IMG/VR virus record: IMGVR_UViG_3300008266_000401
Span: 1-26,480 of that record
From: a virus
Direction: 5' to 3' (one strand)
DNA: 26,480 bases
The translations under genes were made by a program, and so were the position numbers. Below the pieces are notes generated by a model. That model made no database searches. It saw only the letters and a program-made list of their open reading frames with translations, and was not told the DNA's origin. Positions within the stretch are counted from its first letter, which is position 1. Every line of letters starts with the position of its first letter. This document shows, one piece after another, positions 1-9,277 of the stretch.

Positions 1-353
1 CCTGCATGGTGATGAAAGTAGCCATTCTCGCACCATACCAAATCCCTTCAAGGGTGCAAGGGGGGATATGAATTCTTTGGAAAAAATCTCAAAATCGTCT
101 CATCATGCTACGCATGATAGTCCTCTGTGACCTGTGTTTGGTCACGCTTGCATACCCCGTCACAGGACAGTGATTTGTGAATTTGGGTTCCCATGGCAGA
201 CAATCGCTAGCGATTTCAACACCCCCCTACCCTTTTCTATACATTACTTCAAGGAACCCCCCAGACCCTCAAAATTTTTTTGGGTAAAAAAAGCTCTATT
301 AGTCTTTTTTGATAATATTGACTTTTATATTCTTTCGTGATATAATATTCACA
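1..353. other. Gene-poor, palindrome-rich stretch
   Basis: No convincing gene is seen here. The composition is less AT-rich than the neighbouring genes and inverted repeats are dense: ATCATGC/GCATGAT around a 3-nt loop (102-118), CTGTGAC/GTCACAG (125-131 and 159-165) competing with GTGACC/GGTCAC (127-132 and 140-145), and the 14-base palindrome AATCGCTAGCGATT (202-215). An open frame from base 2 to a stop at about 127 could be the tail of an upstream gene, but it resembles nothing I know. The stretch could be a structured RNA, a regulatory region or an intergenic relic. Confidence 0.4.
318..346 (+). promoter_or_regulatory. Sigma70-type promoter for the 354-980 gene
   Basis: TTGACT (318-323) and TATAAT (341-346) are separated by 17 bases, close to the bacterial sigma70 consensus. 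The ATG at 354 lies 7 bases after the -10 box, so transcription would start at or next to the start codon. Confidence 0.8.
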
Positions 354-980
354 ATGTTTAATATTAATATTCCACCGATTGAGTGTATGGTCCGTGGAGA
401 ATATCTGAGAAATATGGAAGATTCTTTTGATAAGAAGTTTCCATGTCTTGTCTTTGGAATGTCAAGTATTCCTTCTAGGACACCCTTGTTTCATTTTCTG
501 ATGGAGGATGGTGGTATATGGTGGAGAATGCCTATATCGGCTTTCTGTTGGAAGAATGATGCAACTGCACAGGAATTGGATGAGTTGGTTCTCTGGGATT
601 CTTTTTCTTATTATTGTGGTGTTGCTGTTTTTGATGTTTTGAAGAATAAAAAAATCTCTTTTATTTCCCGTAGGGGAAAGAAGTATGTCGGAGATTATAT
701 GTTTACTCTGGATTGGGCTTCTGGACCTTCAAATCATCTTGATACTGGCTTTTCGGAAGCGGCTGGACAGCATAAATGTGGGCATGTGATAAGAATGGAT
801 AATGGCAATTATGGAATTCAGCCGAATAATAGAATTCTGGTATGCGATCCTTCGTTTACTGTGAAGAAGAATCTGGTAATTGAAAGAAAAATAAATTCAA
901 GAATATGGACGACTGAGCAGTCTCCGAAATGGGTGACCGAGGATACTGACAATTATTATTATGGTATGAATGAGATGTGA
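354..980 (+). CDS. Conserved phage protein of unknown function (208 aa)
   Basis: The start at ATG 354 is chosen because it sits directly after a strong promoter; an upstream extension of the frame would run into the -10 box. The protein is soluble, with no signal peptide or membrane segment, and is rich in Trp, Phe and Tyr. Striking patches are the MEDGGIWWRMPISAFC region, LVLWDSFSYY, YMFTLDW and a Cys/His patch QHKCGHVIRMDNGNYG followed by PNNR. These give me the impression of a conserved family found in other phages, but I know no function for it. It is transcribed alone: its own sigma70 promoter precedes it and a strong terminator begins at its stop codon. An early role is inferred from the promoter type only. 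Confidence 0.75.
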   Translation: MFNINIPPIECMVRGEYLRNMEDSFDKKFPCLVFGMSSIPSRTPLFHFLMEDGGIWWRMPISAFCWKNDATAQELDELVLWDSFSYYCGVAVFDVLKNKKISFISRRGKKYVGDYMFTLDWASGPSNHLDTGFSEAAGQHKCGHVIRMDNGNYGIQPNNRILVCDPSFTVKKNLVIERKINSRIWTTEQSPKWVTEDTDNYYYGMNEM

Positions 981-1035: not shown

Positions 1036-1473
1036 TTATCCTCGACCTAATCTCATTGCTCGCATTTGGTTGGCTGCCAATCCAGATAAATTTGCACCAA
1101 ATTGCTGCATGGTTTTAGATGTATCACCAACTTTTAATTCTGGATTTCCTATATCTGATACACCAGCTGCTCTATTTGTTGACGAAAATTGTCTTGGAAC
1201 TGATGCTCCTAGAGCAGCTACCATACCCTCTGCTCTTTCTCGTCTCGCTTTCAAGTATGCTTGTTCACCACCAATACCAACTCTTGGTGGTATATTTACT
1301 GGTCTGGACATTATGTTTCCAATTCTTTCAAGTCCTCTCCGTGCAATACCCTGAGTTTGCTGTTGTGGATTTACATAATTTCTTCCCGAAACCATACTTG
1401 ATAATTGACCATATGTTGTTTCTGACAAAGAATTTCTGAGATGTTCTTTATAGATTTCTTTTAGATTTTTCAT
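1036..1473 (-). CDS. Putative internal head protein with capsid-targeting-like leader (145 aa)
   Basis: The N-terminus MKNLKEIYKEHLRNSLSE resembles the leaders of the divergently transcribed genes from 1499 onward. The candidate prohead-protease site L16-S17-E18, followed by T, lies later than the usual position 10. The rest is basic and rich in Gly, Ala, Arg and Gln, without membrane segments or a fold I recognise; it ends MRAMRLGRG. The ATG is six bases downstream of a TATAAATA late box on the minus strand. A packaged head protein is inferred from the leader and neighbours. The weaker leader match makes this less certain than for the plus-strand genes. Confidence 0.6.
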   Translation of the reverse strand: MKNLKEIYKEHLRNSLSETTYGQLSSMVSGRNYVNPQQQTQGIARRGLERIGNIMSRPVNIPPRVGIGGEQAYLKARRERAEGMVAALGASVPRQFSSTNRAAGVSDIGNPELKVGDTSKTMQQFGANLSGLAANQMRAMRLGRG

Positions 1474-1479
1474 ATATTA

Positions 1480-1491
1480 TATTTATAAATA
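1480..1491. promoter_or_regulatory. Palindromic divergent late promoter
   Basis: TATTTATAAATA is a perfect 12-bp palindrome. Read on the plus strand it contains TATAAATA (1484-1491), 7 bases before ATG 1499. Read on the minus strand it contains TATAAATA (1487 to 1480), 6 bases before ATG 1473. TATAAATA is the T4 late promoter -10 element, which needs no -35 box. One element therefore appears to drive two diverging operons. Confidence 0.8.
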
Positions 1492-1498
1492 ATTAAAT

Positions 1499-1828
1499 AT
1501 GAAATCTTTTAAACAATACATTATTGAAGAAGATGAAGAGAAGCCCAGTAGAATGGGCCACTTGATTAAAATTGGAACCAAGATGCAAGATGCAGATTTT
1601 TGGATCACTCGCAGAGGTTCGATTGACAAAATTGGGCATCCATCGAAAGAATATAATCCAGAACACTTTGGTGTGAAAGTGACAAGAACAGATGTTCTAG
1701 ATCCTCGCTATGCTTATTACATGTTTCAACATTTGGCAACCTCTGGTCATTTTCGTCAATTCGCCAAAGGTGCTACAAATTTGGTGAATATAAAAGCAAA
1801 TCATATTACGGATATACCAATCAAATGA
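1499..1828 (+). CDS. Capsid-targeted protein with HsdS-like target-recognition half-domain (109 aa)
   Basis: Residues 1-10, MKSFKQYIIE, fit the T4 internal-protein targeting peptide with cleavage predicted after I8-I9-E10. The body has the pattern of a type I restriction specificity-subunit recognition domain: WITRRGSIDKIG (35-46), a DPRYAYYMFQHL stretch (68-79) like the HsdS YLYYYL segment, and KGATNLVNIKANHITDIPI (90-108), matching the usual ending in G-[ST]-x(n)-I-x(3)-[DN]-[IL]-x(2)-[IL]-P-[IL]. At 109 residues it is only about half of one HsdS repeat. It is first in the plus-strand cargo operon and overlaps the next gene by 4 nt. An anti-restriction role by mimicking the S subunit is inferred. 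The S-subunit match was made by eye. Confidence 0.6.
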   Translation: MKSFKQYIIEEDEEKPSRMGHLIKIGTKMQDADFWITRRGSIDKIGHPSKEYNPEHFGVKVTRTDVLDPRYAYYMFQHLATSGHFRQFAKGATNLVNIKANHITDIPIK

Positions 1829-2256
1829 AATCTTTTAAGAAATATATTTTTGAAAATTCTAAACCGAATTATAGTGGTGTTGTACTGACACCAAAAAGTA
1901 GAGAATTGTTACTCTCCCATCCAGAAATATCATCAAGATTATCAAAGCAGGGTCTTGAGAAAATTGGTCATCATATGACAATCAAAATGGGTGGTTTAGC
2001 AGGCACTGAGCATAAAACAGGAACTGCTGCCACTCTAACAGCCACACACATTGGTCATCTCGGTGATTCTGACAATCCTTCAGTCGTTGCGGTGAGAGTA
2101 TCAGGGCATCCATCTGAAAATAAAACACCACACATTACTCTTGGTGTGAATCGTGAACTTGGTGGAAAACCATTCCATTCAAACAAAATAGAAAATTGGC
2201 AAGCTTTATCAGAACCAATTGAGTTGTCTGGAGAAGTTCAGGAGATTTTTAAATGA
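1825..2256 (+). CDS. Capsid-targeted 2H phosphoesterase-like protein (143 aa)
   Basis: Leader MKSFKKYIFE (1-10) predicts prohead-protease cleavage before N11. The body carries two HxT motifs, H50-M51-T52 in GHHMTIKMG and H103-I104-T105 in PHITLGVN, each in a beta-strand-like setting. This is the signature of 2H phosphoesterases, which act on 2',3'-cyclic or 2'-5' phosphodiester bonds. The length matches small members of the superfamily. T4 Acb1, which destroys the cyclic nucleotides of CBASS defence, belongs to the same superfamily and has about 150 residues. The following stretch GGKPFHSNKIENWQ is typical of some 2H relatives. An injected enzyme that degrades a signalling nucleotide or repairs or cleaves RNA is inferred; the substrate cannot be read from sequence. 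Confidence 0.7.
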   Translation: MKSFKKYIFENSKPNYSGVVLTPKSRELLLSHPEISSRLSKQGLEKIGHHMTIKMGGLAGTEHKTGTAATLTATHIGHLGDSDNPSVVAVRVSGHPSENKTPHITLGVNRELGGKPFHSNKIENWQALSEPIELSGEVQEIFK

Positions 2257-2588
2257 AATCATTTAAAGAACATTTAAATAAACAATTGATAAATGAAATT
2301 GGAGATACTCCAATGGGTCGGCAAATGCTGGCAAGGTATGCTGGTAAAGCGCAAAAGTTCATAGATCAGGCGGCATCAAGAGCCTTTAAAATGTATGACA
2401 GAGCACAGATCATGCAAGATGCTAAAAGAAAAGAGGGATTGCTAAATATAGGTGCTGGTGAGATTAGAAGTAATAGGTATGGGAATAGAGTGCGTGGATT
2501 GTTTGCAGCAAAAAAAATTCTAAAAGGCGCACCTCCAGAAGAGGTTCCAGAATTAAATAAATTGTACAGACAAGAAAGAGGAGAATGA
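2253..2588 (+). CDS. Putative capsid-targeted basic protein (111 aa)
   Basis: It starts MKSFKEHLNKQLINEIG, with a candidate cleavage site after I13-N14-E15, five residues later than in most neighbours. The phrase QLINEIG followed by D/E-T recurs in the 4334-4684 protein, so the two leaders are related. The body is helical and basic (GRQMLARYAGKAQKFID, then a long Lys/Arg-rich stretch), with no Cys and no membrane segment. I do not recognise a fold. DNA association inside the head is plausible from the charge and from the T4 internal-protein precedent. Both ends overlap neighbouring genes by 4 nt. Confidence 0.65.
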   Translation: MKSFKEHLNKQLINEIGDTPMGRQMLARYAGKAQKFIDQAASRAFKMYDRAQIMQDAKRKEGLLNIGAGEIRSNRYGNRVRGLFAAKKILKGAPPEEVPELNKLYRQERGE

Positions 2589-3376
2589 AATCATTTAAGC
2601 AATACATCTCCGAGGATATAATTGGTGGATATGATCCAAATTATATCTACAGAGAAAATTTAGGTCCAAAAAAAATAAAATCTTTAGACCAGTTGGTTAA
2701 GAAGATTGGTGTAAACTATGATCTTGATAATTTGAACAGCACCCGTGTTGATTTAAATGATCAATATCATATTCGTTATGTGAAATACAAGTCGAAGGGT
2801 GATGACAGAACACCACCTAGAGATTTATTGGCGGTTCATGTTTTCTCCAGTGCCCCAGGGCATGAAAGAACTGCTCTGGCAGAATATAAACTGTCCCACG
2901 ATCCAAATAATGTTGTGAAGACTTCCGATGGTAGAGAGATAAAAATGTTTAGTGGAAGTCCTGAGAAAGTAAGAAGAGATACCAAGCGTGGAGTTTTTTC
3001 TTTACCAAAAAATATATTACACACCATAGCAAACTCAACTGGATATGGAATCATGAGCGGATTCAGTCAAACAAAGGGTGGAACAGAACTTTGGAGAAAG
3101 GCCGTGAGACATGGACATGAGTCTGGACATCATGTGAGTAGAATGTATCAATTTAGCAAAAGAAATCCAGAAACCAGAAAAATTTCCAGTGAATGGAAAG
3201 TTGTTGGAAAATCGACACCAAGAACATTCCAAGATGCATATACTGGTGATGTTTCTTTAAGAAAAACTGGAAATAAATCAAGAATTCCAAAAAGAGATTT
3301 CGATCTTCCACCAGAGAAAAATGTTTATGATACCGTTACTAGACTTTATACACACCTTGGAATTTTACCAAAATGA
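2585..3376 (+). CDS. Putative capsid-targeted protein, largest of the island (263 aa)
   Basis: Leader MKSFKQYISE (1-10) predicts cleavage before D11. This is the largest cargo candidate and the most likely to be an enzyme. Residues 79-102 (RDLLAVHVFSSAPGHERTALAEYK) look like beta strands of a folded domain. The GFSQTKGGTELWRK stretch (159-172) resembles a motif I associate with phage proteins sometimes labelled acetyltransferase-like. HESGH at 178-182 formally fits the HExxH metalloprotease pattern, but its surroundings are polar and Gly-rich, so I do not rely on it. The C-terminus is basic. The function is unknown; the leader and operon position suggest packaging and injection. Confidence 0.65.
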   Translation: MKSFKQYISEDIIGGYDPNYIYRENLGPKKIKSLDQLVKKIGVNYDLDNLNSTRVDLNDQYHIRYVKYKSKGDDRTPPRDLLAVHVFSSAPGHERTALAEYKLSHDPNNVVKTSDGREIKMFSGSPEKVRRDTKRGVFSLPKNILHTIANSTGYGIMSGFSQTKGGTELWRKAVRHGHESGHHVSRMYQFSKRNPETRKISSEWKVVGKSTPRTFQDAYTGDVSLRKTGNKSRIPKRDFDLPPEKNVYDTVTRLYTHLGILPK

Positions 3377-3843
3377 AATCTTTCAAACAGATCATATCAG
3401 AAGCAAGACCAACTGGTCAAAAAAGATATTCTAGAGATACTGAAAAACTAGAAAAACTTTTAGATAAATTGTATTCCTCTGGAGTCAGTCAGAAAAAAAT
3501 AGACAGGGCAGAAATGCGCTTGGCTCGTAGAACAAATGACAATGAATACGATGTTGAGGATGAGTTGAGAAAACTTCCGTCGAATCTTGCACATGATGAC
3601 CATTCACCACCAGCAGAATCAGTTGAAGAATTGATGAGAAATGCTGCTAGAAAAATGTATACTGATGGTCATTCACATGAAATGGTTGGACAAAGTATAC
3701 GAGCAAGTATGGGAGATTTTTTACATTATCCAGTAGACATTCAACCAAATGTCACAAATAAAGAATTAGGTATGGAAGCTGAAAAAATGCTAGGTTCAAG
3801 AATAAATTTAATCAATAAAATAAAAGGGAAGAAAAATAAATGA
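3373..3843 (+). CDS. Putative capsid-targeted protein (156 aa)
   Basis: MKSFKQIISE (1-10) followed by A11 is the closest match in the island to the T4 leader MKTYQEFIAEA, including Ala after the cut. The body begins basic (RPTGQKRYSRDTEKLEKLLDKL), then has an acidic/His stretch (AHDDHSPPAESVEELM), a predicted helical segment around ARKMYTDGHSHEMVGQSI and a Lys-rich end. No catalytic motif is recognised. It overlaps both neighbours by 4 nt, so its translation is probably coupled to theirs. Confidence 0.65.
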   Translation: MKSFKQIISEARPTGQKRYSRDTEKLEKLLDKLYSSGVSQKKIDRAEMRLARRTNDNEYDVEDELRKLPSNLAHDDHSPPAESVEELMRNAARKMYTDGHSHEMVGQSIRASMGDFLHYPVDIQPNVTNKELGMEAEKMLGSRINLINKIKGKKNK

Positions 3844-4337
3844 ATTTATTTGAATCTGGTGGTAAAAAAATTCTTGGAGTTAATGCTCTCCAAACCAACG
3901 ACAGGGATGTTGTCAGAGCAATACGAAGATATCGCAATCATCTACATTTGGTAGCTGGAATGAAACATTGGAAAGTTCTAGATCAAAATAGAAATATTAT
4001 TCAAATTTTTCCAATGGGTTCAATTGGACCAAAAGCTGCAATCGGCACTTTGACTAAAGTTAGAAATTATCTTGAAAGTATTGGTCAATACACAAGACAA
4101 AAAGGCGAGTCTGGGGGAGTTACTGACTACAGACAAAATCAACAAGTTGAAAAACAACCACAAAAGCAAACAGTAAGTCCATTAAAAAGAACCGAAGAAA
4201 AAATAAAAAAATATGTGGAGTTGGTTAGAAAACCAACGATGGGAGCTGCAAAAAGGGCAAGACTTTCAAAAGCAATAGATAGATTAAAAGAAAATATAAG
4301 AACAAATTTAATAAATAAAGAAAAGAAGACTCAATGA
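3840..4337 (+). CDS. Basic protein of the cargo operon with atypical N-terminus (165 aa)
   Basis: The N-terminus MNLFESGGKK lacks the usual leader, although L3-F4-E5 followed by S is a minimal I/L-x-E site. Residues about 24-60 (VVRAIRRYRNHLHLVAGMKHWKVLDQNRNIIQIFPMG) look like a small alpha/beta domain, distantly reminiscent of HicA-type double-stranded-RNA-binding folds; this is only an impression. The C-terminal half is Gln-rich, then strongly Lys/Arg-rich and helical. Start and stop overlap neighbours by 4 nt. It may be packaged like its neighbours, but the evidence is operon position and charge rather than a clear leader. Confidence 0.55.
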   Translation: MNLFESGGKKILGVNALQTNDRDVVRAIRRYRNHLHLVAGMKHWKVLDQNRNIIQIFPMGSIGPKAAIGTLTKVRNYLESIGQYTRQKGESGGVTDYRQNQQVEKQPQKQTVSPLKRTEEKIKKYVELVRKPTMGAAKRARLSKAIDRLKENIRTNLINKEKKTQ

Positions 4338-4684
4338 AAAACTTTAAAAATTTCATAACCGAAAATCAATTAATAAATGAAATTGGTGAAACATCTGCTG
4401 GATTAGAAAAACTTCAAAAATTAAATAAAAGGTTATACGATAGGGCAACTTTTTACAATAAAAGAATTGGTAAAATAAAAAATCAAATTTCTGATATTTC
4501 TTCTGAAGTTCCAATGGTTGCCTCAGTATCACCATCTGAAGCTTTGGGTATGGTAGAAAAAATGAAAAGACTTAGAGATATAATGTCTGGTGATGAGGAA
4601 AGTTTTGATAGAGCAGCATCTAGATTTAAAAGATTTGAAAAAAATATAAATTTAATGATCAAAAGAAGAAAAGAATCAACTTAA
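4334..4684 (+). CDS. Putative capsid-targeted helical protein (116 aa)
   Basis: Leader MKNFKNFITE (1-10) gives a predicted cut before N11. A second site, I14-N15-E16, lies in the QLINEIGET phrase shared with the 2253-2588 protein. The rest is almost entirely predicted helix with heptad-like hydrophobic spacing (LEKLQKLNKRLYDRATFYNKRIGKIKNQI) and a basic end (FKRFEKNINLMIKRRK). No enzyme motif is present. It overlaps the preceding gene by 4 nt and is followed by a 17-nt gap, one of the few non-overlapping junctions in the island. Confidence 0.65.
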   Translation: MKNFKNFITENQLINEIGETSAGLEKLQKLNKRLYDRATFYNKRIGKIKNQISDISSEVPMVASVSPSEALGMVEKMKRLRDIMSGDEESFDRAASRFKRFEKNINLMIKRRKEST

Positions 4685-4701
4685 TTTAAAAGAGAATTAA
4701 A

Positions 4702-4908
4702 ATGAATGATAAAGTAAAAATGTATAAAAACATACTAACCAATAGAATTTTACAAAATGAAAGCAACATTGAAGATCTGGCAAGAGCAAATAGAAAGGCA
4801 ACTGGCAAACCAGATACTGGTCCATCAAAAAGAGCAGCGGCACTTGCAAGATTAAAATCTGAAATAGAAGCAGCAAAAAATAAAGAAGAACAAAAAGATA
4901 AAAAATGA
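4702..4908 (+). CDS. Small basic protein of the cargo operon (68 aa)
   Basis: The protein reads MNDKVKMYKNILTNRILQNES and continues as a Lys/Ala/Glu-rich helix ending in KNKEEQKDKK. It has no exact leader: the LQNE stretch places Gln rather than Leu three residues before the cut. The upstream AGAGAATTAAAATG has a weak purine run as a possible ribosome site. Its stop overlaps the next ATG by 4 nt, which supports real translation. The function is unknown. It may be packaged by piggybacking or act as a nucleic-acid-binding peptide; both are inferences from charge and neighbours. Confidence 0.5.
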   Translation: MNDKVKMYKNILTNRILQNESNIEDLARANRKATGKPDTGPSKRAAALARLKSEIEAAKNKEEQKDKK

Positions 4909-5444
4909 AATCTTTTTTAAATTTTATTCTTGAAGGTGAAGCAAAACTGAATAGGCTTTACATTGCTAAAGATTATGGTCGTAATCGTAGTAAAGAAGCT
5001 ACTGCTAAATTATTGTCAAGAATAGATAAAGAAGAAAAAAAAGTATTAGCAAAGCAATTGCTGCGTGGTGCTAAATACGGCAGAATAAGAAAAATAAATC
5101 CAGAAATTTTTAAAAATGTTCAAAAATCTAATATAGATTTTTGGAAATTTGGTCCTAGAACCAGAGAGCAGGAATCTTGGGAAAAAAGAAAAGAAATCTC
5201 AAGGGGAATTCGGGCTGGACAAATACAAATTGAAATGGAAAGACTTTATCCGTCATTGGTAAGTGCAGAGCAAGAAGCCCATAGAATCAGCACATCAAAT
5301 CCAAGATTTTCATACTCCAAGCAACCAAGGCTTAGAGTAATTAGAAGTATGTACAATAAATATTCTAAGGCTCTAATGAATCTTGGTATTGCAAAAAGAG
5401 AAGATCCACCAAGTATTGATCCACCAGAAGAGCAATTTTCATGA
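4905..5444 (+). CDS. Putative capsid-targeted basic protein (179 aa)
   Basis: Leader MKSFLNFILE (1-10) fits the targeting pattern, with cleavage predicted before G11. The body is strongly basic and helical in the first half (LSRIDKEEKKVLAKQLLRGAKYGRIRK). An aromatic patch follows (IDFWKFGPRTREQESWEKR), and the end is Pro/acidic (EDPPSIDPPEEQFS). No catalytic motif or known domain is seen. The body resembles a DNA-binding internal head protein more than an enzyme. Both ends overlap their neighbours by 4 nt. Confidence 0.6.
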   Translation: MKSFLNFILEGEAKLNRLYIAKDYGRNRSKEATAKLLSRIDKEEKKVLAKQLLRGAKYGRIRKINPEIFKNVQKSNIDFWKFGPRTREQESWEKRKEISRGIRAGQIQIEMERLYPSLVSAEQEAHRISTSNPRFSYSKQPRLRVIRSMYNKYSKALMNLGIAKREDPPSIDPPEEQFS

Positions 5445-5680
5445 ACAACATAAAAACTTTTTCTCAGTTTATAAAAGAACAAATGCAGAATCAACCATCT
5501 CCATTCTTTAATCCTGTTGGAATGGCTGGAAGATTGCCATCAAATACTCAACCACATAATAGAGCTGGTAGAGCTGGTAAAGATTTATATGGAAGACCAA
5601 AAAGTATTGGCCCTGGATATAACCTAATGGCTACTCGTCTTGGTCATACTGATTATACTAGTCCAGTTTCTGGAATGTGA
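5441..5680 (+). CDS. Putative capsid-targeted Gly/Pro-rich protein (79 aa)
   Basis: The leader is shifted by three residues: MNNIKTFSQFIKE, with the site I11-K12-E13 before Q14. The remainder is rich in Pro, Gly, Asn and Arg (SPFFNPVGMAGRLPSNTQ, then HNRAGRAGKDLYGRPKSIGPGYN) and looks disordered. With the leader removed only about 66 residues remain, similar to small T4 head peptides. The function is unknown. One base separates its stop from the next ATG. Confidence 0.55.
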   Translation: MNNIKTFSQFIKEQMQNQPSPFFNPVGMAGRLPSNTQPHNRAGRAGKDLYGRPKSIGPGYNLMATRLGHTDYTSPVSGM

Positions 5681-5681
5681 T

Positions 5682-6272
5682 ATGAAAACTTTCAAAAGCT
5701 ATCTTTTAGAATATTTATTAAAAAATACACAAGATGATTTTGATCCAGGTGCTTATACTGCCGATCAAATTTTAAAAGCTTATTCTAAACCTTTTGAATA
5801 TAAAACAGAAAAACACAAATACACATTCAAAAATTTCGGTCATGCCATGTCTTCGTATGTTGGTGCTGATCATGTTAGAAAATATTTAACATTTGTTGAT
5901 GAAAATTCAACCGACAGTCATGATCAGATCGACAGAGAACATTCTGATTTTGAAAAAGCACTACGAGAACATCATGATTCAATTATTGACAATTTAAGTA
6001 AAACTGATCCTATTGTTAATAAAACTATAAAAAAAATAAATGATTCTGGTATAAACTTTAAAAGTAATAATTTTAAAGGTTCAAAAGAAGACGCATCAAA
6101 GTTTATGATTAAAAAACTTGAGGCAAAGTATATGAAGAATCCAGAAACTTACGATGAAACTTTAATGCATTTTTCAAGAAAAGCAAGAGAAAATCATGAA
6201 AGTCATCCATTAAGTCACATATTTTCTGGAGTTGCAGATCCAGAATATGCTGCAATAAAGACAAAAATTTAA
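5682..6272 (+). CDS. Putative capsid-targeted protein, last gene of the first cargo block (196 aa)
   Basis: The start at ATG 5682 is chosen because it gives the leader MKTFKSYLLE, with a predicted cut before Y11, and follows the previous stop by one base; the frame extends upstream only inside the preceding gene. The body is rich in His, Asp, Lys and Ser, with repeated HxxxH-like spacing (DSHDQIDREHSDFEKALREHHDSIIDN and ENHESHPLSHIFSG), predicted to be mainly helical. The His-rich helices could bind metal, but no family is recognised. It converges with the HNH gene, overlapping its end by 4 nt. Confidence 0.6.
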   Translation: MKTFKSYLLEYLLKNTQDDFDPGAYTADQILKAYSKPFEYKTEKHKYTFKNFGHAMSSYVGADHVRKYLTFVDENSTDSHDQIDREHSDFEKALREHHDSIIDNLSKTDPIVNKTIKKINDSGINFKSNNFKGSKEDASKFMIKKLEAKYMKNPETYDETLMHFSRKARENHESHPLSHIFSGVADPEYAAIKTKI

Positions 6273-6712
6273 TATTTTAGTGGAACTGGCTGATTCAGAA
6301 GAAACATCTTTGCCTCTTCTGGTGTTCTGTTGCCCTTTTTTCGATTACATCTTAAGCAACAAGATGTGACATTCTTCCATTCATGCTTACCACCCCTAGA
6401 TCTTGGAATTATATGATCTATCGTGCAATTTTCCTTTGTCAATTCACAGCCACAGTATTGGCACATGTAATCGTCTCTTCTTAGAATATTTTTTCTAGAA
6501 GGACTAAATTCTTTATATGGAATATAAACATATTTCTTTAATACAATATGTTTTGGCAATTTGAATATTCCACTGGTAGTTTGGATATCGATAAATTCTT
6601 CTTCGGTGCATGGACTCACTTTACCATTGAGTACCAAACACACCGCTTTTTTCCAATCAATTTCGAATATCTTCTCGTAAGATACATTATAAAGATTAAC
6701 TACTAAATTCAT
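6269..6712 (-). CDS. HNH endonuclease (147 aa)
   Basis: The classic free-standing HNH architecture is present: an N-terminal strand-rich half (residues 1-65), then C84-x-x-C87, D99-H100 in CTIDHIIPRSRGG, N114 and C119-x-x-C122-N123, ending NRKKGNRTPEEAKM. The paired Cys bind structural zinc and the D-H/N residues form the metal-dependent nicking or cutting site. The start at 6712 is chosen because the family begins at this point (MNLVVNLYNVSYEK) and a TAAATA box lies 5 nt upstream on this strand; a 9-residue longer frame exists. The gene is inserted head-on against the cargo genes, as expected for a homing-type mobile gene. A role in DNA packaging or host-DNA degradation is also possible. Confidence 0.9.
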   Translation of the reverse strand: MNLVVNLYNVSYEKIFEIDWKKAVCLVLNGKVSPCTEEEFIDIQTTSGIFKLPKHIVLKKYVYIPYKEFSPSRKNILRRDDYMCQYCGCELTKENCTIDHIIPRSRGGKHEWKNVTSCCLRCNRKKGNRTPEEAKMFLLNQPVPLKY

Positions 6713-6788
6713 AATAATATTTAGGCTTGACAACCACACAAAGATTATATGTATTTTTTCAAAGTTGTCAAGGCTTTTATATTATTTT

Positions 6789-6796
6789 TATAAATA
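6789..6796 (+). promoter_or_regulatory. T4-type late promoter for the second cargo block
   Basis: An exact TATAAATA box ends 5 bases before ATG 6802. There is no -35 box, as expected for T4 late promoters. The transcript would start at or inside the start codon, so it would be leaderless or nearly so. Confidence 0.75.
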
Positions 6797-6801
6797 TAAT
6801 T

Positions 6802-7014
6802 ATGGGCATAATAGAAAATACAAATAAAAAATTCAATGAAAATGAAAAATATTATTTTGCCTCTTATATAAATTCTGAAGGATATGTTTTTGAATTGTTA
6901 TTAACTGAAAAAGAATTTGACAAAGCAGTCAAAAGGGCTGAAAAGAATCCAGAAGATATTCCGAACGAATATATAGTACTACAAGGATATAAAGGAAAAA
7001 AGGTAGAAAAATGA
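6802..7014 (+). CDS. Small conserved phage protein, paralogue of the 10935 gene (70 aa)
   Basis: The start at ATG 6802 is chosen because it follows the late box directly; the longer frame would begin upstream of the promoter. Residues about 17-45 read YYFASYINSEGYVFELLLTEKE and continue FDKAVKRAEKNPEDIP. This matches the 10935-11147 protein (LYF...LLFTEKEIVKASKRI), so the two are paralogues. The LTEKE-x(2)-KA-x-KRA-x-x-NPED ending is common in small phage proteins of unknown function. It overlaps the following leader-bearing gene by 4 nt. Confidence 0.65.
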   Translation: MGIIENTNKKFNENEKYYFASYINSEGYVFELLLTEKEFDKAVKRAEKNPEDIPNEYIVLQGYKGKKVEK

Positions 7015-7232
7015 AAAATTTCAAAGAACTATTTGAAGAAATAATGTCCAAAAGCGGAAGGGAAGTTTCCGATACCGAAAGAACTAGAGATAGAACAAGA
7101 AGATCTATTGGAATCAGGGTCACTAAAGGCTCCCGTGGAAATGTTCAGGATCTCTTAAAAAGTGGTAGAAAGAAATCAATAAAGGGTAAGTCAGTACATA
7201 AGCGTAAGAAGAATGTATTCAAGAAAAGATAA
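7011..7232 (+). CDS. Putative capsid-targeted very basic protein (73 aa)
   Basis: The leader MKNFKELFE places L7-F8-E9 before E10, one residue earlier than usual. The body is strongly basic and probably disordered, with an Arg-rich stretch (TERTRDRTRRSIGIRVTKG) and a Lys-rich end. This composition is expected of a DNA-condensing or DNA-bound internal head peptide. No domain is recognised. It overlaps the preceding gene by 4 nt and the next by 20 nt in another frame. Confidence 0.55.
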   Translation: MKNFKELFEEIMSKSGREVSDTERTRDRTRRSIGIRVTKGSRGNVQDLLKSGRKKSIKGKSVHKRKKNVFKKR

Positions 7233-7530
7233 TCAAAATATAGTTCAAGAACTTTCCAAAGGTATCTGTAAGGTAGTATTCAAGAAAAGAACCAATGGAA
7301 GGTTTAGAAGTATATTTGGAACTTTAGATAAAAGATTAATACCTGGTAAATATCAAAAAACTTTACAAGTTATATTTGAAAATTATCAAAATTTAGATAT
7401 AATACCAATATACGACATAAAAGAAAAAGCTTGGAAAAGTTTTTATCTAGTCAACCTTTTAAACTTTATACCAGAAGAAAAATTTAAAGCAAACAGTAGA
7501 AAAAAAGAAATTGAAGATGAAAGTGAGTGA
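7213..7530 (+). CDS. SH3-like small phage protein, DUF2693-like (105 aa)
   Basis: Residues 12-45 (VQELSKGICKVVFKKRTNGRFRSIFGTLDKRLIPG) and the later IIPIYDIKEKAWKSFYLVNLLNFI follow the pattern of a small family in T4-like phages: a G-x-C/x-V-x-F-x-K-x-x-G strand pair, a TLD/LIP loop, and a final strand of the form V/I-x-D-x-x-x-x-x-W-R/K-S-F. I know this as DUF2693 and take it to be a small beta barrel of unknown function. The first ATG is inside the upstream gene (20-nt overlap), with AAGAAG as a weak ribosome site. There is no targeting leader, so it is probably not packaged. Confidence 0.6.
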   Translation: MYSRKDNQNIVQELSKGICKVVFKKRTNGRFRSIFGTLDKRLIPGKYQKTLQVIFENYQNLDIIPIYDIKEKAWKSFYLVNLLNFIPEEKFKANSRKKEIEDESE

Positions 7531-7532
7531 TT

Positions 7533-7697
7533 ATGCCAAATTCAAAACAAATTATTGTTAAAAGAAAACACAAGAAAAGAAAACTTAGAATTAAGAAGAG
7601 AAACCAAGAACAAATTTTAAAGAATGCAAAAAAGAAAACAATAGAAAAACTCAGCAGGGAAGGCAGATTACCTAAAATCGCACTTGGAAGACTTTAA
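7533..7697 (+). CDS. Very basic 54-residue protein
   Basis: An open frame begins ATGCCAAATTC two bases after the previous stop and ends at TAA 7695-7697, inside the terminator stem. It encodes 54 residues, 21 of them Lys or Arg and only 3 acidic, with the core KRKHKKRKLRIKKRNQEQIL. Binding to DNA or RNA is very likely from charge alone. It lacks the targeting leader. The size and position resemble those of small phage nucleic-acid-binding peptides, but I recognise no family. The tight spacing to its neighbour and its end at a terminator support it as real. Confidence 0.5.
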   Translation: MPNSKQIIVKRKHKKRKLRIKKRNQEQILKNAKKKTIEKLSREGRLPKIALGRL

Positions 7698-7712
7698 AGT
7701 CTTCCTTTTTTT
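7686..7712 (+). terminator. Intrinsic terminator overlapping a stop codon
   Basis: GGAAGACTTTAAAGTCTTCC (7686-7705) is a perfect 20-base palindrome, forming an 8-bp stem with loop TTAA, followed by seven T. The stem includes the TAA stop of the 54-residue gene. The last T of the run is the first base of the next late promoter. Confidence 0.9.
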
Positions 7713-7719
7713 ATAAATA
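7712..7719 (+). promoter_or_regulatory. T4-type late promoter abutting a terminator
   Basis: An exact TATAAATA lies immediately after the terminator U-tract and 5 bases before ATG 7725. It restarts late transcription for the last two leader-bearing genes, with a predicted leaderless message. Confidence 0.75.
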
Positions 7720-7724
7720 TTTCT

Positions 7725-8213
7725 ATGTTACATTTTAAAGAATATATTTTAGAGCAAAGAAAAAATCTAATAGCTTTATCGCCAGGGGCTTTGAGGGCTG
7801 GTGTTAAATCTGCTGTAACTGGAAAAGATCCAAGACTAGAAAGACTTATATACAGTAGAGCTAGTAAAAGTAATCCAAAGGGTTGGATTAGACTTATAAC
7901 GAAAAAACCATCTGGTGAAGTTGAAAACCTAGGTGATACCCCTAGAGTTAAATCGGAACAGCCGAGAGCAGAGAAAACGATTGCATCAACTGAAAGATTG
8001 ACACCAGAACAAGAAATTTTACAAACTCCAGGGTTCCAAGTAGTAGAACCATCAGCAGAACAATTGGCTAAAGATGAGGAGAGGGGAATAGTAGATTTAA
8101 ATAAAATTGTAGATAGAAGAAAATTTAATTATCTACTTCATAAACAAGGTATAGATCCCTATTTTGCACGATTAAGAGTTAGAATAGCAAAGCAAAGATT
8201 GGGTAAAAAATGA
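7725..8213 (+). CDS. Putative capsid-targeted protein (162 aa)
   Basis: Leader MLHFKEYILE (1-10) gives a predicted cut before Q11. Position 2 departs from the usual Lys but the F-K-x-Y-I-L-E core is intact. The body starts with a Gly/Ala-rich stretch (LSPGALRAGVKSAVTGKD) and continues basic. A Pro/Glu-rich linker follows at about 65-115, and the end is Arg/Lys-rich and helical (DRRKFNYLLHKQ, RLRVRIAKQRLGKK). The arrangement of two basic ends around an acidic linker suggests two nucleic-acid-contacting parts. No known family is recognised. It overlaps the next gene by 4 nt. Confidence 0.6.
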   Translation: MLHFKEYILEQRKNLIALSPGALRAGVKSAVTGKDPRLERLIYSRASKSNPKGWIRLITKKPSGEVENLGDTPRVKSEQPRAEKTIASTERLTPEQEILQTPGFQVVEPSAEQLAKDEERGIVDLNKIVDRRKFNYLLHKQGIDPYFARLRVRIAKQRLGKK

Positions 8214-8368
8214 AAAACTTTAAAGTGTTGCTAGAAACTATAGTTAAGAGAAATGGAAGTTTTTTATTGATGAGTAAAAAGGGAAAAGTTTTAGGAAAGC
8301 ATGAATCAGAAGCAAAGGCTAGAAAACAAGAAGCCGCCATCAAGATAAGTACTGGTGAGTGGAAGTAA
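8210..8368 (+). CDS. Very short capsid-targeted protein (52 aa)
   Basis: The gene starts in the ATGA overlap with the previous stop and ends at TAA 8366-8368. The leader MKNFKVLLE has L7-L8-E9 before T10. The body, about 43 residues, reads GSFLLMSKKGKVLGKHESEA followed by KARKQEAAIK. This is like a small beta-hairpin-plus-helix unit that I have seen repeated in other phage proteins (a G-R/K-V-L-G-K-x-x-S motif). It is the shortest leader-bearing gene in the island and is easily missed by length cut-offs. The function is unknown. Confidence 0.6.
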   Translation: MKNFKVLLETIVKRNGSFLLMSKKGKVLGKHESEAKARKQEAAIKISTGEWK

Positions 8369-8375
8369 GATTGAT

Positions 8376-8404
8376 TTGACTGTTCGTTCACTTTTTGGTA
8401 TACT
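8376..8404 (+). promoter_or_regulatory. Sigma70-type promoter for the 8413 gene
   Basis: TTGACT (8376-8381) and TATACT (8399-8404) have 17-base spacing. ATG 8413 lies 8 bases beyond the -10 box, so the message would be nearly leaderless. It marks the switch from late-type to early-type control. Confidence 0.75.
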
Positions 8405-8412
8405 AGTTGCCT

Positions 8413-8937
8413 ATGAACATCTTTGTAGTTGATTCAGACCCAGAAATTGCAGCAACCAATCTATGCGATAAGCATGTTGTTAAAATGATTGTGGAAGGTT
8501 GTCAGATGCTCTCCACGATCCATAGAATGGGAGCTAGTCATATTGTGTTTGCTGGTCAAGTTGATTTGTACAAGATGGCGTTCGAAAACCATCCTTGTAC
8601 AATTTGGGCAAGAGAGACAACTGCAAATTACATGTGGTTGGCTAGACACACACTTGAACTGTGTATGCAGTATGAATTGCGTTATAAGAAAATTCACAAG
8701 TGTTACGATATGGCATTTTGGTTTACTATACATCTTCCTGCCCGTGTTCCTTACGGAAAGTTGACTCCATTTGCTCAGGCTATGCCAGACATCTATAAGA
8801 ATGAGAATGCAGTGGTGGCATATAGAAACTATTATATTTTCGAAAAGTCTAGATTTGCCAAGTGGAAGTTCACGGATTGTCCAAATTGGTATACGGAAGG
8901 GATCAAGAATGTGCGTGTGCCAGTACTGCAATCGTGA
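8413..8937 (+). CDS. Conserved phage protein of unknown function (174 aa)
   Basis: ATG 8413 (MNIFVVDSDPEIAATNLCDK) is preferred over the in-frame TTG 6 bases upstream because the family begins MNIFV-x-D-x-D-P. The pattern continues CDKHVVKMIVEGCQMLST, ENHPCTIWARET, NYMWLARH, LTPFAQAMPD and YRNYYIFEKSRFAKWK. I recognise this as a family found in many phages and some bacteria, sometimes labelled as a DNA-repair glycosylase, but I know no firm function. The many conserved His, Cys, Trp and Asp/Glu suggest an enzyme. Its 3' end overlaps the following HNH gene by 29 nt in another frame. Confidence 0.8.
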   Translation: MNIFVVDSDPEIAATNLCDKHVVKMIVEGCQMLSTIHRMGASHIVFAGQVDLYKMAFENHPCTIWARETTANYMWLARHTLELCMQYELRYKKIHKCYDMAFWFTIHLPARVPYGKLTPFAQAMPDIYKNENAVVAYRNYYIFEKSRFAKWKFTDCPNWYTEGIKNVRVPVLQS

Positions 8938-9253
8938 ATTTCAAAAGAAACATAAAAGAGGTTGCACAGTATGTCAATCGTGTGATACCACAAGACGAAG
9001 ATGGAAATCAAGAATAGAATTGATCGAAATGCTTGGTGGTAAATGTACTAAATGTGGATTCAGTGAAAATCCAGCATCAATACAGTTTCATCATGTAGAT
9101 CCATCAACAAAGAAATATTCTTTATTTTCTAAAAACTTACTGAGAAAAGATCGATATGAAGAAGCACAGAAGTGTATACTACTTTGCGCGAATTGCCACC
9201 TTCAAGAACATACGAATAAAGAACTATTGAAGAAGTTTGGCTTGATGCCTTGA
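8909..9253 (+). CDS. HNH endonuclease-like protein with N-terminal zinc ribbon (114 aa)
   Basis: The start at ATG 8909 gives the N-terminus MCVCQYCNREF. Two zinc modules are visible: an N-terminal cluster (C4-x-x-C7 with C19-x-x-C22-x-x-C25), and the HNH-type core GGKCTKCGF (C46, C49), FHHVD (H61-H62), a KCILLCANCHLQEH block (C93-x-x-C96-H97, H101). This is the usual arrangement of short phage and bacterial HNH nucleases, in which the HH pair and the CxNCH His bind the catalytic metal. The start lies within the 3' end of the upstream gene, so translation is coupled or the gene has invaded it. Whether it homes or serves the phage cannot be told. Confidence 0.8.
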   Translation: MCVCQYCNREFQKKHKRGCTVCQSCDTTRRRWKSRIELIEMLGGKCTKCGFSENPASIQFHHVDPSTKKYSLFSKNLLRKDRYEEAQKCILLCANCHLQEHTNKELLKKFGLMP

Positions 9254-9277
9254 CAGTAAAAAAAAATCGGATATAAT
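9250..9277 (+). promoter_or_regulatory. Sigma70-type promoter for the tRNA-Lys-like element
   Basis: TTGACA (9250-9255) and TATAAT (9272-9277) are both exact consensus with 16-base spacing. The folded RNA begins 11 bases after the -10 box, leaving a 5' extension of only about 4-5 nt. Confidence 0.85.

What the first reader, a model, noticed from the sequence alone, without database searches (positions are those of the whole stretch)
1036..8368. Island of about thirteen genes sharing a T4 capsid-targeting-like leader: a candidate injected effector cargo
Thirteen small proteins start with variants of MK-S/N/T-F-K-x-x-I/L-x-E. In eight, I/L is at position 8 and E at position 10 (starts at 1499, 1825, 2585, 3373, 4334, 4905, 5682, 7725). 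The others have the site between residues 7 and 18 (1036, 2253, 5441, 7011, 8210). T4 internal proteins begin MKTYQEFIAEA and are cut after I-A-E by gp21; T4 IPI then acts in the host against the GmrSD restriction enzyme. The bodies here are unrelated to one another, and late promoters precede the blocks. A shared leader on unrelated bodies points to one packaging route for many proteins.
Basis: partly seen in the sequence, partly recalled or inferred. Interest (0 to 1): 0.92.

Follow-up and report, generated by a model that had tools for sequence, protein, structure and literature searches.

The report
Head-packaging tag on varied phage cargo
An uncultured T4-like phage carries a block of about thirteen small genes whose otherwise unrelated proteins start with the short tag that phage T4 uses to load proteins into its head for injection, so it probably brings a swappable kit of proteins into each cell it infects.

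Summary
Eight of 19 island genes have I/L at residue 8 and E at residue 10, against 0 of 24 other window genes (shuffle mean 0.27; 0 of 20,000 shuffles reach 8). Five more carry a displaced [IL]-x-E site. The tag is conserved as protein, has sharp 30-nt borders and sits on essentially unrelated bodies. It matches T4's capsid-targeting sequence at the residues mapped for targeting (4, 7) and cutting (8, 10). All 10 tagged contigs of at least 58 kb tested encode gp21 protease, as does a colinear relative of the window phage. Body homologues without the tag exist. Tagged NMNAT-like enzymes were found by mass spectrometry in virions of three cyanophages, but one other tagged gene was not labelled a virion protein. 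Best reading: a T4-type internal-protein cargo system. New is its scope: a fast-turnover island, recognisable cargo (HsdS-type recognition domain, 2H-like phosphoesterase; Nudix, HD, NMNAT in relatives) and fused ORFs with internal tags. Packaging, cleavage and injection in this phage are inferred. Known kind, new variant.

The parts
1036..1473 (-). tagged protein, 145 aa, variant tag MKNLKEIYKEHLRNSLSE, site at E18
   Evidence: TATAAATA on the minus strand 14 nt upstream
1484..1491 (+). late-promoter-like TATAAATA, 15 nt before ATG 1499; an overlapping copy on the minus strand (5' end 1487) serves 1473
1499..1828 (+). tag MKSFKQYIIE + single HsdS-type target recognition domain
   Evidence: PADLOC type I specificity models, best 3.4e-5; AF2 and fold comparison
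1825..2256 (+). tag MKSFKKYIFE + 2H-phosphoesterase-like body (HMT ... HIT)
   Evidence: motifs invariant in three homologues; Pfam tRNA_lig_CPD E 0.02, below cut-off
2253..2588 (+). tag variant MKSFKEHLNKQLINE, site at E15
2585..3376 (+). tag MKSFKQYISE + 263-aa protein, fold unknown
   Evidence: conserved in G001 and G003; no isolate homologue
3373..3843 (+). tag MKSFKQIISE + body of unknown function
4334..4684 (+). tag MKNFKNFITE followed by a second site LINE
4905..5444 (+). tag MKSFLNFILE + body of unknown function
5441..5680 (+). tag shifted by three residues, MNNIKTFSQFIKE
5682..6272 (+). tag MKTFKSYLLE + body of unknown function
6269..6739 (-). HNH endonuclease gene inside the island, no tag
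   Evidence: PHROGs 1.2e-29; same gene in G001 and G003
7011..7232 (+). tag variant MKNFKELFEE, site at E9
7712..7719 (+). late-promoter-like TATAAATA, 13 nt before ATG 7725, just after a hairpin and T-run
7725..8213 (+). tag MLHFKEYILE + body of unknown function
8210..8368 (+). tag variant MKNFKVLLE, site at E9

Best explanation
The island is a T4-type internal-protein cargo locus. Each protein is made late with a roughly 10-residue N-terminal capsid-targeting tag (M-K-[ST]-F-K-x-[YF]-[IL]-x-E). The aromatic residues at 4 and 7 dock the protein into the prohead core, the phage's gp21 protease cuts after the E, and the mature protein stays in the head with the DNA and is injected at the next infection, before any phage gene is expressed. 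Because only the tag is constrained, bodies are swapped freely, giving a fast-turnover kit of host- or defence-directed proteins; here one is an HsdS-type recognition domain and one looks like a 2H phosphoesterase. Shown: the tag, its protein-level conservation, its modularity, island turnover, gp21 in relatives, and (from papers) tagged enzymes in virions of three cyanophages. Inferred: packaging, cleavage, injection and host-directed action in this phage.
For: 8 of 19 vs 0 of 24, 0 of 20,000 shuffles. DNA identity 0.63 in the tag, 0.30-0.33 on either side, with many synonymous differences. Agreement with mapped T4 CTS residues; the same scan of T4 finds ipII and ipIII. gp21 in colinear relative G003 and in 11 of 15 tagged contigs, 10 of 10 of at least 58 kb. 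Body homologues without the tag. Tagged NMNAT in virions of S-SM1, S-SCSM1 and S-SZBM1. TATAAATA 13-15 nt before four island starts.
Against: No proteomics for this uncultured phage; the 26-kb fragment holds no gp21. Of 20 records chosen by gp21, 4 matched the tag pattern (many are fragments) and the isolate Mosig has none. In S-SCSM1 one of two tagged genes has no virion label. NMNAT of P-HM2 and HTVC008M lacks the tag. Most window bodies have no known fold. The T4-like basic character holds in the window (11 of 13) but not in G003 (3 of 10).
Confidence: 0.8

Rival explanations
1. The tag does send proteins into the prohead core, but most of them are core, scaffold or head-assembly components, not injected effectors.
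For: T4 IPIII also affects head assembly. Two tagged families are widespread: 19 and 16 of 89 bodies. T4 gp61.1 is tagged and matched in 1,386 isolate records.
Against: Recognised bodies are enzymes or DNA-recognition folds. Island content turns over: 5 of 15 and 2 of 15 island genes found in G001 and G003, against 14 of 15 other genes in each.
Confidence: 0.25
2. The tag packages the proteins but is not cut; they stay bound inside the head.
For: In T4 targeting and cutting are separable: Asp at position 10 blocks cutting, not targeting. Five of 13 window tags have displaced sites.
Against: E10 is kept in 8 of 13 and a displaced [IL]xE in the other five. gp23 of these phages shows the same [IL]xE logic near its expected cut.
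Confidence: 0.1
3. The shared starts are a DNA-level repeat, a translation signal or recent gene duplicates rather than a protein signal.
For: Three G003 tags are identical over 30 nt, so short-tract copying may happen.
Against: Window tags: 94 same-residue comparisons with different codons against 153 with the same codon; identity falls to background on both sides. One body pair of 78 below E 0.01.
Confidence: 0.03

Closest known systems
T4 internal proteins IPI, IPII, IPIII with capsid targeting sequence, processed by gp21
   Same: 10-residue N-terminal tag with aromatics at 4 and 7, I/L at 8, E at 10; unrelated bodies; several per phage; gp21 lineage.
   Different: T4 has three, inhibitors of different GmrSD type IV restriction enzymes (passages of PMC12373910). 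Here 13 lie in 7.3 kb, none recognisably GmrSD inhibitors, and some bodies look like enzymes or restriction-specificity domains.
T4 Alt ADP-ribosyltransferase
   Same: An enzyme packaged in the head, cut by gp21 and injected (passages).
   Different: Alt starts MELITELFDE, not this tag; no Alt-like protein was recognised here.
NMNAT-like virion enzymes of cyanophages (GC190)
   Same: Tagged in 8 of 11 N-termini I looked at and found in virions.
   Different: The window island has no NMNAT; the papers' passages that I saw name no tag.
Polyvalent proteins (PMC5512222, passages)
   Same: Idea of phage-packaged, injected conflict proteins, including fusions.
   Different: Defined by multidomain fusion, not by a short cleavable tag; here mostly one body per tag, though two G003 ORFs hold internal tags.

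Membership tests
T4-type CTS internal proteins | N-terminal tag with aromatic residues at 4 and 7 | tested here: met
   F4 in all 8 strict window tags; Y or F at 7 in 7 of 8, I in 3373; five variants looser
T4-type CTS internal proteins | gp21 cut site [IL]-x-E at 8-10 | tested here: met
   8 of 13 at 8/10, 5 of 13 displaced
T4-type CTS internal proteins | gp21 protease in the same phage | tested here: inconclusive
   window is a fragment without it; colinear relative G003 has it; 11 of 15 tagged contigs have it
T4-type CTS internal proteins | Bodies share no homology beyond the tag | tested here: met
   1 of 78 pairs below E 0.01, over 18 residues
T4-type CTS internal proteins | Late expression | tested here: inconclusive
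   TATAAATA 13-15 nt before four island starts; 7 sites vs 4.3 expected in all; no expression data
T4-type CTS internal proteins | Present in virion, cut, and injected | not testable with these tools
   only proxies: tagged NMNAT in cyanophage virions
Type I restriction specificity subunit (HsdS), for 1499 | Target-recognition-domain fold | tested here: met
   PADLOC 3.4e-5; VIA Z 9.0, 97 aligned, rmsd 4.0; Foldseek top hits only E 0.02-0.04
Type I restriction specificity subunit (HsdS), for 1499 | Two recognition domains plus conserved helices in a chain of about 400 residues | tested here: not met
   109 aa, one domain; HsdS models matched are 392 aa or longer
2H phosphoesterase superfamily, for 1825 | Two H-x-[ST] motifs | tested here: met
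   HMT at 50-52 and HIT at 103-105, invariant in three sequences
2H phosphoesterase superfamily, for 1825 | Profile match above the curated cut-off | tested here: not met
   tRNA_lig_CPD 14.8 bits vs 23; no PDB sequence match

The most novel reading that the evidence does not exclude
A portable, cleavable head-packaging tag defines a large hidden class of injected phage proteins across uncultured T4-like viruses, findable by the tag alone. It would deliver restriction-specificity decoys, nucleotide-signal hydrolases and NAD-related enzymes at time zero. In some lineages tags sit inside fused ORFs, so gp21 would release several proteins from one precursor.
Probability: 0.45. Interest if true: 0.85.

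Novelty: new variant of a known kind. Interest (0 to 1): 0.68.

Why it matters
If right, a 10-residue tag predicts which phage proteins of unknown function enter the cell with the DNA, before defences can act. That is a direct route to new anti-defence and takeover proteins in abundant aquatic phages, gives a delivery mechanism for enzymes already seen in cyanophage virions (NMNAT), and makes the question of which unknown phage proteins act at time zero testable with one fusion or one mass-spectrometry experiment.

Tried and rejected
Chance resemblance: rejected. DNA repeat or translation signal as main cause: rejected. Fold of 2585: AF2 on three sequences gave mean pLDDT 46 and Foldseek nothing usable, so no fold is claimed. 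2H-like body versus T4 57B: hhalign probability 22%, not established. PDB sequence searches with the 2H and recognition-domain profiles gave nothing and one chance-level hit. Pfam, PHROGs, NCBIfam and PADLOC gave no convincing family for most window bodies. The body-only search for 5682 found only a near-identical contig. The 210-aa tagged family has one weak isolate hit. A looser tag pattern gave 5 matches in 7 records, 3 of them not tag-like. A first thought that T4 gp61.1 is an accessory internal protein was weakened by its wide conservation and the lack of TATAAATA within 150 nt (ipI-ipIII lack it too in that stretch). Paper searches listed no paper that reports this tag in marine T4-like phages, and no held paper prints the five tag strings; most subscription papers and all bioRxiv are missing, and Repoila 1994 is not held.
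Full report
WHAT IS THERE. The window is a 26,480-base IMG/VR virus fragment of a T4-like phage: PHROGs names gp32-type ssDNA-binding protein (14876), baseplate hub (17414, minus), tail tube (18140, minus), head closure (18745, minus), tail tube cap (19193) and baseplate wedge (20044) proteins. By gp32 the best isolate matches are marine cyanophages, all below 60% identity. A second record, 99.9% identical over 5,059 bases, covers 4211-9269 of the window.

OBSERVATION. All 13 ORFs are at the stated places. Eight have I/L at residue 8 and E at 10; five have [IL]xE with E at 9, 9, 13, 15 or 18. Among my 43 window genes the 8/10 rule holds in 8 of 19 island genes and 0 of 24 others; residue shuffles average 0.27 and never reach 8 in 20,000. 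One of 78 body pairs is below E 0.01, through 18 residues shared by 2253 and 4334. TATAAATA starts 13-15 nt before the starts at 1473(-), 1499(+), 6802(+) and 7725(+); the total of 7 sites is only modestly above the 4.3 expected.

THE TAG IS A PROTEIN SIGNAL. Over 11 window genes, mean pairwise DNA identity is 0.63 in the 30-nt tag and 0.30-0.33 on either side; relatives G003 and G001 give 0.74 and 0.71 in the tag and 0.25-0.33 outside. Over codons 2-10 of all window pairs, 153 comparisons have the same codon, 94 the same residue with another codon, 248 another residue. Three G003 tags are identical over 30 nt, so some short-tract copying is possible. Tags are slightly more alike within a genome than between genomes (0.649 vs 0.575; 48 tags, 12 genomes; 0 of 2,000 label shuffles), which would fit matching to each phage's own head core; relatedness of some bodies was not controlled.

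MATCH TO THE T4 SIGNAL. PMC9026906 (passages) says that in T4 IPIII targeting depends mainly on residues 4 and 7 and processing on 8 and 10, and that fusions of the tag alone carry foreign proteins into heads and then into cells. The tag here has F4, mostly Y/F7, I/L8 and E10. A scan of T4 gave 6 matches, 3 of them at annotated starts: ipII, ipIII and 61.1. ipI is missed because its site lies later. At the gp23 site T4 reads FLTE|A; Mosig has FLSE|A, S-SM1 ILTE|T, and near the aligned place S-SCSM1 has FLAE|A and G003 SLFE|N (that T4 is cut there is recalled).

BEYOND THE WINDOW. Of the 80 loci returned, 75 hold a tagged ORF; 89 bodies, a few of them loose matches, form 47 clusters at E 1e-3. 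Of ten bodies scanned against Pfam, four pass a cut-off: cytidylyltransferase-like (L165), HD_4 (L178, 3.6e-16), DPBB (L218, 3.1e-12) and DUF6267 (L160); cytidylyltransferase-like L164, methyltransferase-like L213, HAD-like L188 and a glycosidase-like L215 stay below, L173 and L148 have nothing convincing. One of ten further bodies from G003 and G001 passes: Nudix (1.4e-14). Tag pattern versus its reversed control in whole records: 10 to 1 over 11 isolate records (not every match was checked to be a gene start), 23 to 0 over 21 records, 18 to 0 over 10 contigs that had been chosen for the tag.

PROTEASE. G003 (117,772 bases) keeps 14 of 15 non-cargo window genes tested, in the same order, and carries gp21 Peptidase_S77 (E 2e-33). 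Of 15 tagged contigs tested 11 carry gp21, including all 10 of at least 58 kb. A rough baseline: a gp21 search matched 2,505 of 50,697 isolate records of all sizes. The converse does not hold: 4 of 20 records chosen by gp21 matched the tag pattern, and the isolate Mosig, the top row of the gp21 search, has no match.

MODULARITY AND TURNOVER. The 2H-like body occurs without the tag in both relatives found (L265, L266). The recognition-domain body lacks it in L267 and L269-L271, which are near-copies of one another, and has a shorter tag-like start in L268. Of 11 NMNAT N-termini I looked at (11 of the 532 records matching S-SM1's), 8 have the tag or a form shifted by one or two residues: S-SM1, S-ShM2, S-SSM6b, S-SCSM1, ACG-2014f, P-RSM6, S-B68, S-SZBM1; P-HM2 starts at the enzyme domain, HTVC008M has no site, and DLP6 has only a loose MKNIKDILEA. 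G001 keeps 5 of 15 and G003 2 of 15 island genes, while 14 of 15 other genes are kept in each (G003's contig begins inside its island, and short proteins are easier to miss). In G003 one ORF has a second tag-like site, LRSFSSFIQE at residue 289, just before a domain homologous to 1499, and another has an in-frame MKSFKDFLSE at 247: fused cargo with an internal gp21 site, or for the latter an internal start.

VIRION EVIDENCE FROM PAPERS (passages only). S-SM1: SSM1_190 (MKKFSAFLNEA; GC190); GC190 was detected in purified S-SM1 virions (PMC3037559). S-SCSM1: NMNAT (MKSFLQFLKEA) is among 45 proteins found by MS, though its authors allow that such proteins might be carry-over (PMC9602691). The other tagged S-SCSM1 gene, gp030, has no virion label. 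S-SZBM1: the 362-aa cytidylyltransferase was found by MS (PMC9146016); the in-frame ATG that gives 362 aa reads MRFRQFIIEA. S-CREM2 also has a cytidylyltransferase in its virion list (PMC10665884); I did not see its N-terminus, but S-B68, which that paper puts in the same cluster, starts MKNFNSFLTEA. None of the passages I saw in these four papers mentions an N-terminal tag.

CARGO IN THE WINDOW. 1499: 16 of 17 PADLOC matches are type I specificity subunits (best 3.4e-5). The best AF2 model has pLDDT 80, the other four 51-62. Foldseek's first four hits are restriction-modification chains, but none is below E 0.001; VIA gives Z 9.0 to an HsdS over 97 residues, and 30 of 32 rows are restriction or adenine-methyltransferase entries, most of them below Z 8. 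As a lone domain it might mask sites or poison HsdM-HsdS assembly: a guess, about 0.25. 1825: two H-x-T motifs invariant in three homologues, other support weak. The remaining bodies have no secure assignment. Window tagged proteins are basic after removal of ten residues (11 of 13 at pI 9 or more, against 10 of 30 others), as T4's are said to be, but only 3 of 10 in G003 are.

KNOWN OR NEW. T4 Ip1-3 share only an N-terminal packaging leader and each blocks a different GmrSD enzyme; at least 10 such proteins were known in T-even relatives (PMC12373910, passages). So the principle is known. In the library held I found no paper that applies it to these phages, which is a limited search. New here are the size and turnover of the island, restriction-related and enzyme-like cargo, the tag on 47 body clusters, and fused ORFs with internal tags.

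VERDICT. Observation confirmed. The packaging route is very likely right (0.8); effector function for most members is likely but less sure (about 0.6). Known kind, new variant.

Noticed in passing
L133 18966-19130 (T4 gene 61.1, minus): T4 gp61.1 starts MKTFKEFIKED, a tag-like leader, and its body resembles by eye the stretch of gp23 after the cut site; the 54-aa query matched 1,386 isolate records, some perhaps gp23 itself. A candidate further head-targeted T4 protein.
   Followed up: partly
L009 4584-5771 and 7935-8894 (G003): Fused ORFs with an internal tag-like sequence before a second domain, possibly gp21-processed precursors.
   Followed up: partly
window 6269-6739 (-) and 8903-9253 (+): Two HNH endonuclease genes in or beside the island; the first is kept in G001 and G003 at 63-66% identity.
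   Followed up: partly
window 7660-7725; G001 just upstream of 21252 (-): Hairpin plus T-run directly followed by TATAAATA 13 nt before the start codon: the same terminator/late-promoter layout in both phages.
   Followed up: no
L137 7677-7716 and 7972-8011 (G017): Identical 40-nt upstream stretches, with GATAAATA, before two different tagged genes.
   Followed up: no
L045 5328-6251 (G003): Ala/Gly/Arg-rich repeat protein between gp21 and gp22, starting MNNNKKLLSEE.
   Followed up: no
window 2253 and 4334 starts: Two tagged proteins share QLINEIG[DE]T right after the tag, with a second [IL]xE site.
   Followed up: no
window 309-980: Matches PHROG 3704 (labelled ferredoxin) at 5.5e-53, just outside the island.
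   Followed up: no
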